A stretch of DNA of 22,990 bases from a virus (IMGVR_UViG_3300042991_000389:1-22990), one strand, 5' to 3'. Counted from the stretch's first letter, positions 2,612 through 22,465 are shown. The notes: generated by a model not told the origin, from the sequence alone. A program made the numbers and translations.

Positions 2612-3136
2612 ATGAGACAAAAAGAAGCTGAACACAAAATTAATTACTTAATTAAATCATCAACTGTAAGATTGGTAGGAGATAACGTAGAAAACTGTGT
2701 TTCAGACACAAGAAAAGCTTTAAGCATAGCAAGAGAAATGGGTTTAGATTTAGTTGAAATTTCAAATAATGGTGGAATTTCTATTTGTAAAATTGTTGAT
2801 TACAATAAATTTCTTTTTGATAAAAAGAAAAAAGAAAAAGAACTCAAAAAGAAACAAAAAGAAAAACAATTTGACATTAAAGAAATCAGAATGACACCAA
2901 ATACTGATGATCACGATTTCAATTTTAAATTAAATCATGCTAAAAATTTCTTAAGTCACAACGATAAAGTTTTATTAACAGTATTCTTTAAAGGTAGAGA
3001 AATCACATATAAAGAAAAAGGTGAAATTATATTATTAAAATTTGCACAAGAATTAGAAGGAATTGGTATTGCTGAAAATTTACCAAAATTAGAAGGTAAA
3101 AAAATGGTGATGACTATAAAGCCAATTAAAAAATAA
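2612..3136 (+). CDS. infC: Translation initiation factor IF-3 (phage-borne, full length)
   Basis: At 174 residues it matches bacterial IF-3 (about 180) over both domains. The N-terminal domain shows INYLIKSSTVRLVGDN and GLDLVEISNN, then CKIVDYNKFLFDKKKK, the usual CKIxDYxKF sequence leading into the basic linker. The C-terminal domain shows KEIRMTPNTDDHDFNFKL, VFFKGREITYKEKGE and PKLEGKKMVM, the hallmark segments that bind the 30S platform and monitor initiator tRNA pairing. The DDHDxNFKLxHAKxFL and VFFKGR wording is typical of Bacteroidota IF-3, suggesting capture from that kind of host. The start is an ordinary ATG; bacterial infC normally uses AUU for autoregulation. A stop at 2600-2602 precedes it in frame. 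Confidence 0.95.
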   Translation: MRQKEAEHKINYLIKSSTVRLVGDNVENCVSDTRKALSIAREMGLDLVEISNNGGISICKIVDYNKFLFDKKKKEKELKKKQKEKQFDIKEIRMTPNTDDHDFNFKLNHAKNFLSHNDKVLLTVFFKGREITYKEKGEIILLKFAQELEGIGIAENLPKLEGKKMVMTIKPIKK

Positions 3137-6878: not shown

Positions 6879-7127
6879 TTATTTAACCACTTCTGATTCT
6901 GGTTTTGCTTCTACCATTTCTGGCTCAGCAACTTTTAACTTTTCCATTGGCATAACTATCCAAGTAATTATGTATGCTATTAACGATATACCATTAATTA
7001 ATAATAAAGCCACACAAAGTAATCTAACGATTACTGGGTCAATATTAAAATAATTAGCAATTCCACCACATACACCACCAATAATTTTATCGGTTTTTGA
7101 TCTGTAAAGTCTTTTTGTTGTTTCCAT
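6879..7127 (-). CDS. PspC-domain membrane protein
   Basis: An 82-residue protein with a complete PspC domain: RLYRSKTDKIIGGVCGGIANYF, then NIDPVIVRLLCVALLLING and a hydrophobic helix SLIAYIITWIVMPM, with a short acidic Pro/Glu tail. IGGVCGGIAxYFxIDPxxVRL is the family signature. In bacteria PspC proteins sit in the inner membrane and take part in envelope-stress responses; small stand-alone PspC proteins are common in Bacteroidota. In a phage it may stabilise or tune the host membrane during infection, which is inference. Its base composition is slightly less AT-rich than its neighbours, which fits recent capture. It ends at the bidirectional terminator. Confidence 0.92.
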   Translation of the reverse strand: METTKRLYRSKTDKIIGGVCGGIANYFNIDPVIVRLLCVALLLINGISLIAYIITWIVMPMEKLKVAEPEMVEAKPESEVVK

Positions 7128-7276: not shown

Positions 7277-8167
7277 ATGACAGCACAAGAAAAACGAGAA
7301 AAAATAGCAGAATTAAAAAAGAAAATTGATACCACTCAAGCAGATTATGATAGAGCAAAAGCTATGCAATTAGCTTTAAAGCTTGTTATTAATGGTACCT
7401 ATGGTGCTTTTGCACACCCAAAATTTGTTTTATCTAACTCACATATTGCTAATGCTATTACAGCTATGGGTCGTGATGTTATACAATATATGTTAAAAAT
7501 GATTGAAAATTATTTTTATAATGAATGGCATTTAGATATTAATGCACATGAAAAATTAGGTTTAGAATATATCGGTGAAAAAAATGGAAAATATTTTCTT
7601 TTAGATAAAAATGGTGAAAACATACATTATCCGCACAATTCATTAGATGAATTATTAAGCAAATTGAATATTTATAGAAATGATTTGATAGAAGATAAAA
7701 AAGAATTAAATGGTTATAATATATTATGCTATAGAAATATTCATGATTTTAGTAATATATCAAAAATACCAAAAGAAGAACCAATAATTATATACGGTGA
7801 TACAGATTCTTGCCACAAAGACACTATTATAATTACAAATAATGGAGAAAAAACAATTGAATATTTTTATAACGAAAACATTAAAAAGGGCTCTGCTGGC
7901 ATAACACTAAAAGGACATGAAAGTGTTTATACAAATGATAAAATATTAAATTATGATGAAAATAAAGGTTTATATTACGCACCAGTAAAAAGAATCATCA
8001 GACACAAGGTTTCTAAAACAAAATGGAAATTAAAAACAAAATCGGGTGAGGAGATTATAGTTACTAATGATCATTCAATGATTGTATTTAGGAATGGTAA
8101 AAAATTAGAAGTTAAACCATCAGAAATATTAAAAACAGATAAAATTCTATCTGTTAGAAAAAAATAA
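7277..8167 (+). CDS. Family B DNA polymerase fragment (fingers to motif C) fused to an N-terminal split intein
   Basis: A 296-residue ORF. Residues 1-34 are charged helices typical of the polymerase fingers. KLVINGTYGAF (K35, N39, Y42, G43) is motif B, KxxxNSxYG with Ser replaced by Gly. Residues 173-178, YGDTDS, are catalytic motif C with both aspartates, followed by CHKDTIIITNNG, the start of an intein. From S178 the sequence reads as the intein's N-terminal half, with block B TNDH at 263-266, and stops at 296. The exonuclease domain and motif A are absent, and the ATG is the first start after an in-frame stop at 7268-7270, so the N-terminus is genuinely short. It functions only if joined to the C-extein at 9522-10352. 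Confidence 0.93.
   Translation: MTAQEKREKIAELKKKIDTTQADYDRAKAMQLALKLVINGTYGAFAHPKFVLSNSHIANAITAMGRDVIQYMLKMIENYFYNEWHLDINAHEKLGLEYIGEKNGKYFLLDKNGENIHYPHNSLDELLSKLNIYRNDLIEDKKELNGYNILCYRNIHDFSNISKIPKEEPIIIYGDTDSCHKDTIIITNNGEKTIEYFYNENIKKGSAGITLKGHESVYTNDKILNYDENKGLYYAPVKRIIRHKVSKTKWKLKTKSGEEIIVTNDHSMIVFRNGKKLEVKPSEILKTDKILSVRKK
7808..8164 (+). other. N-terminal half of a split intein (Int-N, 119 residues)
   Basis: It spans residues 178-296 of the ORF. Taking S178 as residue 1 gives SCHKDT, which puts D5 and T6 of block A at the canonical places (compare CLxxDT), and excision then leaves YGDTD joined to SLYVSF, the standard DTDS-hydrophobic-Y-V polymerase motif. If C179 were residue 1, the product would be DTDSSLYV with one extra Ser. 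Block B is IIVTNDHSMIV with the TxxH pair. The half ends in a normal stop, with two further in-frame stops before the endonuclease ATG. Confidence 0.88.
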
Positions 8168-8206
8168 AATTACTATATTTATATATAGAGATAAACGTAT
8201 CACCAT

Positions 8207-9397
8207 ATGAAACAATATAATAAAAATTGGATAACTTGGTTCAATAAAAATAAAACCAAAAAACTTTATAATGATGTGTTAATAGATATTTTTCCACAAC
8301 ACAAAAGATGTAGAATTTGTGATGGTCCTATATATTTTTATGATTCAACATTTAGTATTAATCGAAACAATGATATATTTCCATTAAAAAAATCTTATTT
8401 ATCAATTAAAAAATTATATAATAACAATTATCATTTAAGTGTATGTGAAGATTGCTTAACAGAAAAATTTTCAGAATATAAAAATATGAATAAATCTAGA
8501 GTCTTTAATAAATTAAATGATATTACAGAATTTGCATTCAATATTCCAAAAGATATTGCTGAAAAATTTAAAAATGAAAATTATAAAGTTACAAAAGATA
8601 ATTTAATAAAAAAATATGGCGAATTAATTGGTAATGAAAGATGGAACTCTTACAAAAATAAACAAGCATACACAAACACCTTTGATTATAAAAATAAAAA
8701 ATATAATTGGACATTAGATAAATTTAAAGATTATAATAAAAGTAGATCAATAACTTTATCAAATTTAATTGATAAACACGGAGAAGAAAATGGTATTAAA
8801 ATTTGGGATGAATATATTATAAAACAAAAAGAAACAAAATCTAAAAAATATGTTATAAATAAATATGGGTTAGAATACTGGATAGCTTTATGTAAGAGTA
8901 AAAAAGTTACAATAAATCATTTTATTGAAAAATTTGGTAAAGAAAAAGGCGAGGAACTTTATATAAATAAAATACATAATAATATTTATTTACCATCAAA
9001 AATATCGGGCGAAGTTTTTGATAGAATTGATATGATATTAGGTAAAAAATATAAAACATATTATTATAAAAAAGATGGATTCGAATTTGGTAAATTACTT
9101 TCTAATGGTAGATATGTTTTTTTAGATTATTATATATTGGATTTAAATATTTGTATAGAATATTATGGCAATGTTTGGCATGCTAATCCTAATTTTTATA
9201 AATATAATGATATACCATTTTCATTCAAAGGTAATAAAAAAATCGCACAAGAAATTTGGTACGATGATAAAGAAAGAATATCACTTTTAAAAAAAGACTT
9301 TAATATAGACACAATTGTTATTTGGGAGACAGATGATATTTCAATTAAAAATATATTAACAAAAATTAAAAAATTAAAAAATGATAAACAAAATTGA
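8207..9397 (+). CDS. Free-standing Vsr/EDxHD-like homing endonuclease lying between split-intein halves
   Basis: A 396-residue protein with its own ATG. The N-terminus has a possible zinc site (C35-x2-C38 and C80-x2-C83). The middle holds repeats around KYGELIGNERW, KHGEENGIKIW and KFGKEKGEELY, which resemble DNA-binding repeats of phage homing endonucleases. The C-terminal nuclease has D307 in VFLDYYILD, E318 in CIEYYG, H325 in VWHANP and D352/D353 in WYDDKERISLL, a spacing like Vsr and the EDxHD enzymes. It should cut intein-less polymerase genes and so spread the intein pieces. The last 17 bases overlap the next ORF. It shares a frame with the N-intein but is separated from it by three stops. 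Confidence 0.85.
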   Translation: MKQYNKNWITWFNKNKTKKLYNDVLIDIFPQHKRCRICDGPIYFYDSTFSINRNNDIFPLKKSYLSIKKLYNNNYHLSVCEDCLTEKFSEYKNMNKSRVFNKLNDITEFAFNIPKDIAEKFKNENYKVTKDNLIKKYGELIGNERWNSYKNKQAYTNTFDYKNKKYNWTLDKFKDYNKSRSITLSNLIDKHGEENGIKIWDEYIIKQKETKSKKYVINKYGLEYWIALCKSKKVTINHFIEKFGKEKGEELYINKIHNNIYLPSKISGEVFDRIDMILGKKYKTYYYKKDGFEFGKLLSNGRYVFLDYYILDLNICIEYYGNVWHANPNFYKYNDIPFSFKGNKKIAQEIWYDDKERISLLKKDFNIDTIVIWETDDISIKNILTKIKKLKNDKQN

Positions 9398-9521
9398 ATA
9401 CTATTTTGATGATATAGAATCGTGTGAAATGATAGGTGAATTTGAAGATGAGTATGTTTATGATATTGAAGTAGATGATAATACTCATACTTTTATTGGT
9501 AATAATATATTAGTTCATAAT
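9381..9521 (+). other. C-terminal half of a split intein (Int-C, 47 residues)
   Basis: Block F reads VYDIEVDDNTHTFIGNN and block G reads ILVHN, with the penultimate His and terminal Asn needed for branch resolution, followed by Ser as the +1 nucleophile. All C-terminal splicing residues are present, so activity is expected. The size (47) together with the 119-residue N-half is typical of natural split inteins with no endonuclease domain of their own. Confidence 0.92.
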
Positions 9522-10352
9522 TCTTTATATGTATCTTTTTCACCAGTAATGAAATCTTGCAATTTTAAAGGTGATGAATTAGATTTCATTTTACACTTAG
9601 ATAGAACGGTTATTAAAAAGAGATTCACAAAATATCTTGATGAATATGCTGAAAGATTTGGTGTTAAAAATCTACACGACTTTGAGCTTGAAACTATAAA
9701 TAGATCTGCTTTACACATACAGAAAAAGCATTATATAAATAACGTAGTATTTGAAGATGGTATTTTTTATGAAAATTTATCATATTTTTATCCAAAAGGG
9801 GTTGAAATTGTCAAATCATCAACACCACCATTTGTAAGAGAAAATATTTATGACTTTTTAAAATATATATTTGCAAATCCAAATAATATAAATATTAGAA
9901 AAATATTAACATTAGTTAAAGATTTGAAAAAACAATTCATGATGGCAGACATTGAAGCAATAAGTATGACTACCAGTTGCTCTAACTATCAAACAAAGGT
10001 TATAGATGATGTTACTGATGTTGTTACTGTTAAAGGAGCACATTTTGGTGTTAAAGCGGCAGCATTACATAATTATTTATTAAATAAAAACTCTGAATAT
10101 AAAACTAAATATGATAATATAAGAGGTGGTAGAGTTAAATATTATTATTGTAATCACCCAAAAAATAATGTTTTTGCATATGCTAGAAGTTTTCATCCAT
10201 ATGAAATAGTAGAAAAAGAAAATCTTCGTATAGATTATGATGAACAATTTGATATTTGTATGTTAAATGTTATCAACAGATTTCTAGAGCCAATTGGACT
10301 ACCAACAATTAATAAAAGATTATCAGTTTTAAACTCAATATTTTCAATATAA
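9381..10352 (+). CDS. C-terminal split intein fused to family B DNA polymerase palm/thumb
   Basis: A 323-residue ORF. Residues 1-47 are the intein C-terminal half and residue S48 starts the extein SLYVSFSPVMK, the continuation of motif C. Downstream, KKHYINNVVFEDG is the KKRY-type motif and YPKGVEIVKSSTPPFVR is the conserved strand-loop of the polymerase C-terminal palm and thumb, followed by a normal thumb-length tail. Trans-splicing with the upstream half would give a polypeptide of about 453 residues (177 plus 276) with motifs B and C and the thumb. Its ATG lies within the last codons of the endonuclease gene after an A-rich leader. It is followed after 17 bases by the sliding clamp. Confidence 0.93.
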   Translation: MINKIEYYFDDIESCEMIGEFEDEYVYDIEVDDNTHTFIGNNILVHNSLYVSFSPVMKSCNFKGDELDFILHLDRTVIKKRFTKYLDEYAERFGVKNLHDFELETINRSALHIQKKHYINNVVFEDGIFYENLSYFYPKGVEIVKSSTPPFVRENIYDFLKYIFANPNNINIRKILTLVKDLKKQFMMADIEAISMTTSCSNYQTKVIDDVTDVVTVKGAHFGVKAAALHNYLLNKNSEYKTKYDNIRGGRVKYYYCNHPKNNVFAYARSFHPYEIVEKENLRIDYDEQFDICMLNVINRFLEPIGLPTINKRLSVLNSIFSI

Positions 10353-10369: not shown

Positions 10370-11131
10370 ATGTCAAATATATCTTATAAATTCACAATGT
10401 CAATACAACAATTAAAATTTTTCTTGGACAAAGTTCATGATTTATTATCAATTGACAACGAAATATTAATAAAGATAAATAAAGATAAGACTTTATTATA
10501 CTCAATTGTTGGTGAAAAAATGAACGTTAATGCTTTCAAATCATTTATATACAATACAAATGAATTATTTTCTTTTGATAATGATTTAGAAAAAGAAATT
10601 AGATTCATAGTTACAGGAGGCAAGAAATTTGAAGATACGTTAAAACATTATATTGATTATGATGAAGAGATAAATTGTGAACTTTTTATGAATGACGATA
10701 CTTACGCTGACAATTTTAAATTAAAAAATACAACATTAAATTTAAGTATTGGCGGTGGTGATATTAGAGGAATGAATACTACTATTGATATAGAAAAGAT
10801 TAATAGTACTTTAAATAAAGATAATATAGATTTTAAATTCATATTAGATAAAAATTCATTTGCTAAAATAAAGAAAATAGGAGCGGTTGATAACGAAAAC
10901 GATATTTTATATTTGCATATAAAAGATAACAAAATATCAATTGGCGAAGGTAATTGGGATCTTAAAATCAGTGATGTTGAACACGAAGATACTTCAATTT
11001 CATTTCCTAAAAAATATTTTAAATCTATAACATTTACAGAAGAAACTATAAATGTCTATGTTTTTGATACATTTCTATTAATAGATAATAATAATACAAG
11101 TTTATTGATAGCATTAGAATTAACAATATAA
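10370..11131 (+). CDS. Probable DNA polymerase sliding clamp, T4 gp45-like
   Basis: A 253-residue protein directly after the polymerase. The pattern fits a two-domain phage clamp: alternating strands and helices without catalytic motifs (ISYKFTMSIQQLKFFLDKV; ILIKINKDKTLLYSIVGEK; FKFILDKNSFAKIKKIGAV; ILYLHIKDNKISIGEGNWDL), acidic overall, with a C-terminal strand LLIALELTI. T4 gp45 has 228 residues. The clamp would encircle DNA and hold the polymerase, and in T4 it also activates late transcription. Sequence similarity in this family is low, so the call leans on its position beside the polymerase and on the fold-like pattern. It converges on the terminase gene with 5 bases between stops. Confidence 0.7.
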   Translation: MSNISYKFTMSIQQLKFFLDKVHDLLSIDNEILIKINKDKTLLYSIVGEKMNVNAFKSFIYNTNELFSFDNDLEKEIRFIVTGGKKFEDTLKHYIDYDEEINCELFMNDDTYADNFKLKNTTLNLSIGGGDIRGMNTTIDIEKINSTLNKDNIDFKFILDKNSFAKIKKIGAVDNENDILYLHIKDNKISIGEGNWDLKISDVEHEDTSISFPKKYFKSITFTEETINVYVFDTFLLIDNNNTSLLIALELTI

Positions 11132-19315: not shown

Positions 19316-20560
19316 TTAATTTTTATATAATTCTTTTTTTAATTTTTGTAAAATATCTTCATCATATTTTATTCTTATTAATTTAATTTGATTCTCTGTA
19401 CAAAAATTAGTTTTGATATCATCATTAATTTTGGTATTTTTTAATTTTTTATCACCACCAAAATACTTTATTGGAATAAAATGTTGTATTCCATCATATT
19501 CTATACAACAATTATATTTTGGTAAATAAAAATCAAATGATAATTTTAAAATATTAACACATTTATCGAATTTTTGTTGTCTATTAAAAATAATATCATT
19601 TTCTTTTAAAAATTTAGCAATTTGTTTTTCACCAAAACTTTCACCGCAAATTGAACAACCTCTCTTGGTACCATTAATATGATCATTTGGTGCTAAATTA
19701 AATTCACCATGAATTTGACAAATAATTTTAACCTTATCAAATGTATTAATATACTCAACTAATGAATAATCATATTTGTTTCCGTGTATTTTTTTTGCCT
19801 TTTCAATAAAAATATCTGTATTTAATTTTTTTATATCATCCGAACATTTTTTACAACCACTTCCTCTTATATGATATATTACTTCCTGTTCAAACATACC
19901 GTGTTTAGGACAAACTATTTTAACTTTTGTATATTTATCTTTATAATCCACTAAATAATAATCATATTTATTATTGTGTGTTTTTTTAGAACTGCGTATA
20001 AAATTCTCCTCCCTTTTACACAAAACACAACCAACATCAATATGAGATTGAGGAAATTGTTCAAATTTTCCATGTTTAGGACAGATAATATCTACTTTAG
20101 TATAAGAATTTTTATATTTTGTTAAACTATAATCATATTTATTATGATGAACATTATTTGCATTTTCAATAAAATTATTAATATTTATTGAACATTTTAT
20201 ACAACCACAACCATTTAAATGAACAGATGGCAACTGTTCAAATTCTCCATGCTTAGGACATAATATTTTTATTTTATTTTGTGAATTTTTATACTCAACC
20301 AACGAATAATCATAATAGTTATTGTGTTTTTCTTTAGCTCTTTTAATAAAATTAGATAATGTTAATTTTTTTGTACCACCACAATTAGGACAACCTCGTT
20401 TAATGAAATGTTTATCAGGAGTTTGTTCAAATTTACCATGTTCTTTACAAATTATAATAACTTTAGTTCTCAAATTTATATAATTAACCAATGAATAATC
20501 ATATTTATCACCATGTATTTCAATTGAACTGTCTATAAACCATTTATTATCATATCTCAT
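19316..20560 (-). CDS. Homing endonuclease with five zinc-ribbon-like repeats and a Vsr/EDxHD-like nuclease
   Basis: A 414-residue protein. Five tandem repeats of about 57-60 residues fill residues 7-305, each with the outline HGxKYDYSLVxY, KVxIxCxxHGxFxQ, H and GCxxC (for example HGDKYDYS at 16, HNNYYDYS, HHNKYDYS, HNNKYDYY and HGNKYDYS at 259); these match the DUF723-type repeats of phage endonucleases and probably bind zinc and DNA. The C-terminal domain has D343 in LSFDFYLP, E354 and D356 in CIEYDGIQHF, H360 and a later D381, fitting the EDxHD/Vsr nuclease fold. It stands alone upstream of the structural operon, consistent with a selfish insertion. It is behind a terminator and so probably has its own promoter. 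Confidence 0.87.
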   Translation of the reverse strand: MRYDNKWFIDSSIEIHGDKYDYSLVNYINLRTKVIIICKEHGKFEQTPDKHFIKRGCPNCGGTKKLTLSNFIKRAKEKHNNYYDYSLVEYKNSQNKIKILCPKHGEFEQLPSVHLNGCGCIKCSININNFIENANNVHHNKYDYSLTKYKNSYTKVDIICPKHGKFEQFPQSHIDVGCVLCKREENFIRSSKKTHNNKYDYYLVDYKDKYTKVKIVCPKHGMFEQEVIYHIRGSGCKKCSDDIKKLNTDIFIEKAKKIHGNKYDYSLVEYINTFDKVKIICQIHGEFNLAPNDHINGTKRGCSICGESFGEKQIAKFLKENDIIFNRQQKFDKCVNILKLSFDFYLPKYNCCIEYDGIQHFIPIKYFGGDKKLKNTKINDDIKTNFCTENQIKLIRIKYDEDILQKLKKELYKN

Positions 20561-21661: not shown

Positions 21662-22465
21662 ATGATAATAACAAAAAGTGTTAAAATAGAAATTAATAAA
21701 GGTAACATACCTTATTATAAAAAATATGAAGAATTTAAAAATATAAAAATTGGTGATATTATTGATGTTGATTTAAAATATCTATCAAAATCGAATCATA
21801 GTAAAATAGAATATATCTGTGATATTTGTGGAGCAAAAAAGGAAACAACATATGTATCATATTGTGATCCGAGAAGAGATAAAGATAAAGATGTGTGCAA
21901 AGGTACTTGTGCTAATGAAAAAAGGGAAAACACAAATATGGAACTTTATGGTGTTAAAAACTGTTTTCAAAACGAAAAAATGAAAGAAACAGCAAAAGAA
22001 ACTATGTTAAAAAAATATGGTGTATATCATAACATGAAAACAGAAAAGTGTTTAAATGATAGAAAAGAAACATATATTAAAAATTGGGGTGTTGATAATC
22101 CGACAAAAAATAGAGGTATTTTTAAAAAAGCATTAAATTCAGGTAAAAAAATAAAATATTTCAATAATACAAATATATATTATCAAGGATTATATGAATT
22201 AGATTTTTTAGAAAATTTTTATGATAAAATAGAAATAGAAAATGGTCTATCAATACAATATATATTTAATGATGAAGAAAAAATATATCATAGCGACTTT
22301 TTTATTCCAAATAAAAATTTAATAATAGAAATAAAATCAACATATTGGTATGAACGTCAAAAAGATATGAATATCGCTAAAATATCATATACCAAGGAAA
22401 AATATAATTTCATTTTAATATTAGATAAACAATATGACGAATTTATAAAATATATAAATATTTAA
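21662..22465 (+). CDS. Putative homing endonuclease, PD-(D/E)xK type
   Basis: A 267-residue protein. A possible zinc site lies at C53-x2-C56 with C68, C79 and C83. Three repeats follow with the outline YGVxN: MELYGVKNCFQ, LKKYGVYHNMK and IKNWGVDNPTK (about residues 93-149), a pattern common in phage homing endonucleases and probably DNA-binding. The C-terminal domain has YYQGLYELDFL (173-183), D212 in HSDFFIPNK and E223-x-K225 in LIIEIKSTYW, the PD-(D/E)xK nuclease core. It is a different nuclease fold variant from the two Vsr/EDxHD-like enzymes in this window. It follows the ribbon-helix-helix gene by one base and converges on the glycosyltransferase with overlapping stops in TTAA. Confidence 0.82.
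   Translation: MIITKSVKIEINKGNIPYYKKYEEFKNIKIGDIIDVDLKYLSKSNHSKIEYICDICGAKKETTYVSYCDPRRDKDKDVCKGTCANEKRENTNMELYGVKNCFQNEKMKETAKETMLKKYGVYHNMKTEKCLNDRKETYIKNWGVDNPTKNRGIFKKALNSGKKIKYFNNTNIYYQGLYELDFLENFYDKIEIENGLSIQYIFNDEEKIYHSDFFIPNKNLIIEIKSTYWYERQKDMNIAKISYTKEKYNFILILDKQYDEFIKYINI

What the first reader, a model, noticed from the sequence alone, without database searches (positions are those of the whole stretch)
7277..10352. Fractured DNA polymerase: split intein in catalytic motif C with a free-standing endonuclease gene between the halves
Seen: ORF 7277-8167 ends in an intein N-half right after YGDTD; ORF 9381-10352 begins with an intein C-half ending ILVHN followed by SLYVSF; ORF 8207-9397 between them is a separate Vsr/EDxHD-like endonuclease. 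The N-half and endonuclease share a frame but have three stops between them, and the C-half is in another frame, so one sequencing error cannot explain it. Known: fractured genes with split inteins flanking Vsr-like endonuclease genes have been described, mostly in environmental phage sequences. Inference: the polymerase active site exists only after trans-splicing, so splicing gates replication.
Basis: partly seen in the sequence, partly recalled or inferred. Interest (0 to 1): 0.85.

Follow-up and report, generated by a model that had tools for sequence, protein, structure and literature searches.

The report
Phage DNA polymerase split by intein
A bacterial virus's DNA-copying enzyme is encoded in separate pieces that a self-splicing protein element (a split intein) should rejoin, with a DNA-cutting gene sitting between the pieces; the arrangement is real and mobile, but the same layout is already known from other phages.

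Summary
ORF 7277-8167 is family B polymerase (motif B to motif C, YGDTD) fused to a 119-aa intein N-half starting at Ser1. ORF 9381-10352 is a 47-aa intein C-half (LVHN) followed by SLYVSF and the rest of the polymerase. ORF 8207-9397 is a separate Vsr-fold endonuclease. Contigs from several metagenomes repeat the layout; close relatives have an uninterrupted gene there. The cassette is mobile: two relatives share it at dS 0.04-0.13 while the polymerase around it differs at dS 0.5-0.75.

The kind is known. Aeromonas phage Aes123 has gp43A / gp43B1+intein-N / VSR endonuclease / gp43B2+intein-C, and its intein trans-splices in vitro. Tenacibaculum phage PTm1 and Lak phages match too.

It also missed that the gene between the halves is exchangeable (several endonuclease types, one methyltransferase-like gene), and that the intein alternates between one-piece and split forms.

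'Splicing gates replication' is unsupported: intein-free and one-piece alleles exist, and homologous inteins splice spontaneously. Verdict: new member of a known kind, in an informative family.

The parts
7277..7807 (+). PolB second segment, N-extein (gp43B1-like): motif B (KLVINGTYG, about 7379-7405) to motif C (YGDTD, 7793-7807)
   Evidence: PF00136 E 1e-10; phrog_1918 from profile position 13; aligned with intein-free L020, L012-L017
7808..8167 (+). Intein N-half, 119 aa, Ser1 nucleophile, TNDH block, NX-motif RH, plus stop
   Evidence: TIGR01445 E 9e-11; alignment A2 invariant columns; PDB 9HTH match E 7e-23
8165..8206 (.). Spacer with three in-frame stops (8165, 8186, 8192) between N-half and endonuclease
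8207..9397 (+). Free-standing Vsr-fold (EDxHD-type) endonuclease, 396 aa: N-terminal Cys-pair region, helical repeats, C-terminal nuclease with E293, D307, E318, H325, D354
   Evidence: phrog_22677 E 8e-42; tblastn to VSR endonucleases; AlphaFold2 pLDDT 90.8; fold match to Vsr 1CW0; residues conserved in 25-26 of 26
9381..9521 (+). Intein C-half, 47 aa, ends LVHN (penultimate His, terminal Asn); its ATG overlaps the endonuclease end by 17 nt
   Evidence: TIGR01443 E 1.2e-5; alignment A1
9522..10352 (+). PolB third segment, C-extein (gp43B2-like), +1 Ser of SLYVSF to polymerase end
   Evidence: phrog_262 positions 581-851 E 1e-30; tblastn 54% to LR756501

Best explanation
This is a mobile split-intein/homing-endonuclease cassette (about 1.7 kb, 7808-9521) inserted in the second polymerase gene of a huge T4-like phage, at the codons for motif C (YGDTD|S). 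The two halves are translated as separate proteins. The intein fragments bind each other and splice in trans by Ser1/Ser+1 chemistry, restoring YGDTD-SLYVSF (inferred from conserved residues and a biochemically active homologue). The rejoined polymerase-B chain then assembles without a covalent link with a separately encoded front part, exonuclease plus motif A, which lies outside this contig (inferred from relatives). The free-standing Vsr-type endonuclease cuts cassette-free alleles during co-infection, so that repair copies the cassette in (homing; shown only by its sequence signature in relatives). The split intein makes the insertion harmless to the host gene. A regulatory role is not needed.
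For: Profile hits to both intein halves and both polymerase parts. All splicing residues conserved in 10 diverged alleles. Homologous Aes123 PolB1 intein solved as 9HTH; it trans-splices, and its engineered CLm form has t1/2 16 s (PMC11923092, PMC13014065). Same gene order annotated in Aes123 and PTm1. Empty-site alleles in L012-L017 and L020. Homing signature between L006 and L009: dS extN 0.75 and extC 0.52, against intN 0.04, endonuclease 0.13, intC 0.04 (sliding identity). Occupancy needs at least 5-6 changes on the polymerase tree; L011's polymerase groups with empty L014-L017 and L007's with empty L020. Window dN/dS 0.06-0.23 in every part against its closest relatives. Front part on the same contig but 96 kb away in L011's contig, about 86-87 kb in two others. 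No Rfam RNA family in the window.
Against: Splicing, cleavage and homing were not tested for this sequence. Wild-type Aes123 halves splice only about 30% in vitro (PMC11923092). The front polymerase gene is absent from this 23-kb fragment. Many dS values between the window and its relatives exceed 1, so the homing signature is clean only for L006/L009. The Foldseek match to Vsr has E 6e-3 (probability 1.00, TM-score 0.52 on the target).
Confidence: 0.88

Rival explanations
1. Domesticated switch: the phage keeps the split so that trans-splicing controls when the polymerase becomes active.
For: The break lies inside catalytic motif C, so unspliced halves should be inactive; both intein halves are under purifying selection.
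Against: Near relatives have no intein and more distant ones a one-piece intein; state changes are frequent and not clustered on the intein tree; homologous inteins splice spontaneously in vitro (PMC11923092). Purifying selection is expected anyway, because failed splicing would destroy the polymerase.
Confidence: 0.06
2. The halves work as non-covalent subunits, the intein pieces being inert remnants.
For: The same polymerase already tolerates a non-covalent break between the fingers helices; gene-in-pieces enzymes without splicing are known, for example a phage ribonucleotide reductase (cited in PMC10448857).
Against: All splicing residues are intact and constrained; an unspliced 119-aa tail would sit at the active-site hairpin; a homologous intein splices.
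Confidence: 0.04
3. Decaying or mis-assembled gene (pseudogene, frameshifts, chimeric contig).
For: The window is an incomplete metagenomic contig.
Against: Contigs from several different samples share the layout; dN/dS 0.06-0.23 against its closest relatives; complete isolate genomes such as PTm1 have it.
Confidence: 0.01

Closest known systems
Aeromonas phage Aes123 gp43A / gp43B1 / VSR endonuclease / gp43B2 (JN377899), Aes123 PolB1 split intein (PDB 9HTH)
   Same: Same gene order, same DTD|S insertion site, Ser1/Ser+1 split intein, related endonuclease (32.8% identity over 63%), break before motif B
   Different: In Aes123 gp43A directly abuts gp43B1; in the window's relatives the front part lies 86-96 kb away. 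The window intein has two non-catalytic Cys. Sequences strongly diverged.
Tenacibaculum phage PTm1/PTm5 split polymerase (ORF236, ORF239-241)
   Same: Same pieces and order, annotated 'intein-containing split DNA polymerase precursor' and 'VSR endonuclease'
   Different: Front part only about 2 kb upstream with two ORFs between; 34-37% protein identity
Prevotella Lak megaphage PolB (MK250016, MK250024)
   Same: Same split site, same endonuclease family, front polymerase gene unlinked
   Different: Read here with TAG as a residue (table 15); extra short ORFs after the endonuclease; 33-36% identity
Pseudomonas phage MIJ3/Paride PolB split intein (PMC6892783)
   Same: Split intein at the same YGDTD|S site with an endonuclease gene between
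   Different: Front part not separated (N piece of about 800 aa); a different, longer endonuclease type
Fractured genes (Dassa et al. 2009) with the Vsr-like/EDxHD endonuclease family (I-Bth0305I)
   Same: Split intein flanking a free-standing Vsr-like endonuclease gene (paper known from citations and memory; not held)
   Different: Here in the second gene of an already divided polymerase

Membership tests
Class 1 Ser1/Ser+1 split intein (PolB type) | Nucleophilic Ser1, block-N3 TxxH, penultimate His, terminal Asn, Ser+1 | tested here: met
   S at 7808, TNDH, LVHN, S at 9522; invariant or near-invariant in A1/A2
Class 1 Ser1/Ser+1 split intein (PolB type) | NX-motif His preceded by Arg/Lys, signature of Ser1 inteins (PMC10189870) | tested here: met
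   RIIRHKV; this His is invariant in A2 (definition)
Class 1 Ser1/Ser+1 split intein (PolB type) | Halves splice in trans | not testable with these tools
   Shown for homologous Aes123 and LCGC14 inteins only (PMC11923092, PMC12707363)
Fractured gene arrangement | Two extein-intein genes with a free-standing endonuclease gene between the intein halves | tested here: met
Vsr-fold / EDxHD homing endonuclease | Vsr-like nuclease fold | tested here: met
   Best PDB matches Vsr 1CW0 (probability 1.00) and 1VSR (0.99), then AbaSI; E-values are weak (6e-3)
Vsr-fold / EDxHD homing endonuclease | Ordered E, D, x, H, D active-site residues | tested here: met
   E293, D307, E318, H325 invariant and D354 25/26; assignment of the pattern rests on memory of the family
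Vsr-fold / EDxHD homing endonuclease | Cuts the cassette-free allele | not testable with these tools
   Needs biochemistry
Homing mobile element | Cassette much less diverged than flanking host gene; patchy occupancy | tested here: met
   L006/L009 dS contrast, sliding identity, patchy tree; shown for relatives, weaker for the window itself
T4-type family B polymerase | Exonuclease and motif A present in the genome | tested here: inconclusive
   Not in this 23-kb fragment; found unlinked in three relatives' contigs

The most novel reading that the evidence does not exclude
The motif-C intein of huge-phage polymerases is a reusable docking site. Unrelated endonucleases, and once a DNA methyltransferase-like gene, replace one another between the same intein halves, and the intein switches repeatedly between one-piece, split-with-endonuclease and split-with-decayed-endonuclease states: a homing cycle caught at several stages.
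Probability: 0.45. Interest if true: 0.6.

Novelty: new member of a known kind. Interest (0 to 1): 0.42.

Why it matters
It adds a well-supported, strongly diverged, naturally split Ser-type intein and bears on how such splits arise. Similar alleles with and without the endonuclease gene (L039 against L036/L043) place the insertion to within a few bases, and decayed copies point to its loss. That makes the origin of naturally split inteins directly testable, offers further natural split inteins for protein engineering, and gives an essential polymerase apparently assembled from three polypeptides by two different means.

Tried and rejected
Group I/II intron in the interval: no Rfam family at E 0.1 over the whole window. 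PDB sequence search with the endonuclease: nothing meaningful; only the fold search worked. AlphaFold of the intein-free polymerase-B protein: pLDDT 46 with 8 sequences, discarded. The front polymerase gene was sought in the window's own record with the PolB family model: only the known segment found. A short inverted repeat upstream of the endonuclease (GATAAACGTATC, 8190-8201) was followed, but the exact motif recurs only in L129 and chance gives a match with up to 2 mismatches in 17% of shuffles. A T4-type late promoter octamer was tested in relatives' spacers: clear there, but no exact match in the window's own spacer on the coding strand. Genome contigs gave mostly weak distant hits, no clear host. 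Sequencing error and pseudogene readings rejected.

Full report
WHAT IS THERE. The window is an IMG/VR viral contig fragment of 22,990 bases, 23% GC. ORF 7277-8167 (296 aa) begins just before polymerase motif B, runs to YGDTD at 7793-7807 and continues into a 119-aa intein N-half. ORF 9381-10352 (323 aa) begins with a 47-aa intein C-half ending LVHN and continues with SLYVSF and the polymerase C-terminus. ORF 8207-9397 between them is a separate 396-aa protein. The N-half and endonuclease share a frame with stops at 8165, 8186 and 8192; the C-half lies in another frame with 30 stops across the interval, and its start codon overlaps the endonuclease end by 17 nt.

IS IT REAL. The same three-gene order occurs in contigs from different metagenomes (L006, L009/L010, L011, and as far as the contig reaches L008), and L007 has the same intein halves with another endonuclease. 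L012-L017 and L020 encode the same polymerase segment as one uninterrupted stretch of about 453 residues with YGDTDSLYISF and nothing inserted. Codon comparison of the window with its closest relatives gives dN/dS 0.06-0.23 for every part, endonuclease included (0.21-0.23), so all look like functional genes; against the more distant L011 the endonuclease reaches 0.5, and many dS values are near saturation.

THE INTEIN. Ser1, the TNDH block, the penultimate His, terminal Asn and Ser+1 are all present and conserved in ten diverged alleles. The Arg-His pair that marks Ser1 inteins (NX motif, PMC10189870) is also there. The best solved structure found by sequence is 9HTH (E 7e-23), the Aes123 PolB1 intein (PMC13014065). 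That intein trans-splices: about 30% efficiency as wild type (PMC11923092), t1/2 16 s for the engineered CLm form (PMC13014065). Trans-splicing of the window's own intein is inferred, not shown.

THE ENDONUCLEASE. No Pfam family matches, but phrog_22677 does (E 8e-42), and tblastn finds proteins annotated VSR endonuclease in PTm1 and Aeromonas phages. The AlphaFold2 model has mean pLDDT 90.8; the best solved folds are E. coli Vsr (1CW0, probability 1.00; 1VSR, 0.99) and the Vsr-like enzyme AbaSI. E293, D307, E318 and H325 are invariant and D354 nearly so in 26 relatives, in the order expected of EDxHD enzymes (pattern order from memory; family outline in PMC3943268).

A POLYMERASE IN THREE PIECES. 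The window has no exonuclease or motif A. In three relatives' contigs the front part (about 494 aa) is a separate gene on the other strand: 96 kb away in L011's contig, about 86-87 kb in two others. In LR756501 (735 kb) and Lak-A1 the two genes are unlinked as well. By alignment to RB69 gp43 and relatives the front part's match ends near residue 492 and the back part's begins near 525, the fingers region (domain limits from memory). PTm1 and Aes123 also have this break, but with the genes close together. So the polymerase should need one non-covalent assembly and one trans-splicing event.

MOBILITY. L006 and L009 differ at dS 0.75 and 0.52 in the polymerase parts but only 0.04, 0.13 and 0.04 in intein-N, endonuclease and intein-C; sliding identity rises sharply at the cassette. 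On the polymerase tree occupied and empty alleles interleave (6 changes, at least 5 forced by supported branches): L007 groups with empty L020, L011 with empty L014-L017. This is the classic signature of homing, and it shows that the split cassette can move as a unit.

EXCHANGE OF THE MIDDLE GENE. Among 65 distinct motif-C intein alleles collected here, 15 are one-piece and 50 are split. In the 66-row tree set (65 plus Aes123), the gene between the halves is phrog_22677-type in 30, DUF723-type in 3 (L007, L033, L034), a longer endonuclease type in 3, GIY-YIG in 1 (L082), a DNA methyltransferase-like gene in 1 (L063; phrog_56, no Pfam hit); in 13 no long intervening gene is left. The window's intein is sister to L007's (support 99/90), whose endonuclease is of a different type and 46% identical to another endonuclease in this same window (19316-20560). 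One-piece and split states need at least 13 changes on the intein tree and are not more clustered than shuffled labels, though the alignment is short and many branches are weak.

SNAPSHOTS OF A CYCLE. L039 (one-piece) and L036/L043 (split) match on both sides of a 1,171-bp insert carrying the endonuclease gene (blastn 88-90% upstream, 76-88% downstream), so insertion or clean removal is placed to within a few bases. L069 keeps only the last codons of the endonuclease of its close relative L061, and L046, L070, L128, L143 and L145 keep fragments. Some short gaps could be sequencing errors; the direction of change is not known. In 10 of 35 endonuclease-bearing alleles the 60 bases upstream of the endonuclease hold TATAAATA, the T4 late promoter octamer (identity from memory), against 0.48 expected, and none upstream of the C-half or N-half. 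The window has no exact copy there on the coding strand, so this is not claimed for it.

HOW IT WORKS. Shown: layout, conserved active sites, selection, empty alleles, homing signature in relatives. Inferred: trans-splicing, polymerase assembly from three chains, endonuclease cutting of cassette-free alleles. Not supported: control of replication by splicing.

KNOWN OR NEW. The layout is a fractured gene (Dassa 2009, not held here) and matches Aes123, PTm1, Lak and MIJ3 polymerases. It is a new, diverged member of a known kind. What may be new is the comparative picture of exchange and of one-piece/split interconversion; I found no paper describing it in nine searches of an incomplete library.

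CONTEXT. The terminase large subunit is closest to phages of 630-735 kb (LR756501, LR745206). Only 3 of 23 genes have a Shine-Dalgarno-like site and upstream regions are A-rich, which, with Prevotella and Tenacibaculum relatives, suggests a Bacteroidota host (inference).

Noticed in passing
window 2612-3136 (+): Complete phage-encoded translation initiation factor IF-3 (IF3_N E 2e-20, IF3_C E 2.5e-30).
   Followed up: no
window 6879-7127 (-): Stand-alone PspC-domain protein (E 8e-27) directly upstream of the polymerase segment.
   Followed up: no
window 19316-20560 (-): Second endonuclease, DUF723-repeat type, next to baseplate-region genes; 46% identical to the endonuclease that sits between the intein halves in L007.
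   Followed up: partly
window 21662-22465 (+): Third endonuclease-like gene, DUF7487 (E 8e-25; phrog endonuclease hits).
   Followed up: no
L063 6115-6948: A DNA methyltransferase-like gene (phrog_56 E 2e-28; DPPY motif) sits between the PolB intein halves in place of an endonuclease.
   Followed up: partly
L039 against L036 and L043: One-piece and endonuclease-split alleles of a similar intein; insertion placed to within a few bases.
   Followed up: yes
L069 against L061, also L046, L070, L128, L143, L145: Split inteins whose intervening gene is reduced to endonuclease remnants.
   Followed up: partly
spacers upstream of the endonuclease in L044, L054, L061, L064, L076, L077, L082, L083, L087, L133: T4-late-promoter-type octamer TATAAATA in 10 of 35 alleles against 0.48 expected, suggesting separate late expression of the endonuclease.
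   Followed up: partly
L011 5092-5748 and 5714-5980: Two ORFs without family hits lie between the endonuclease and the intein C-half; Lak phages also have extra short ORFs there.
   Followed up: no
window 10370-11131 (+): 253-aa protein without any family hit directly after the polymerase; a sliding clamp would be expected here by analogy, but was not shown.
   Followed up: no
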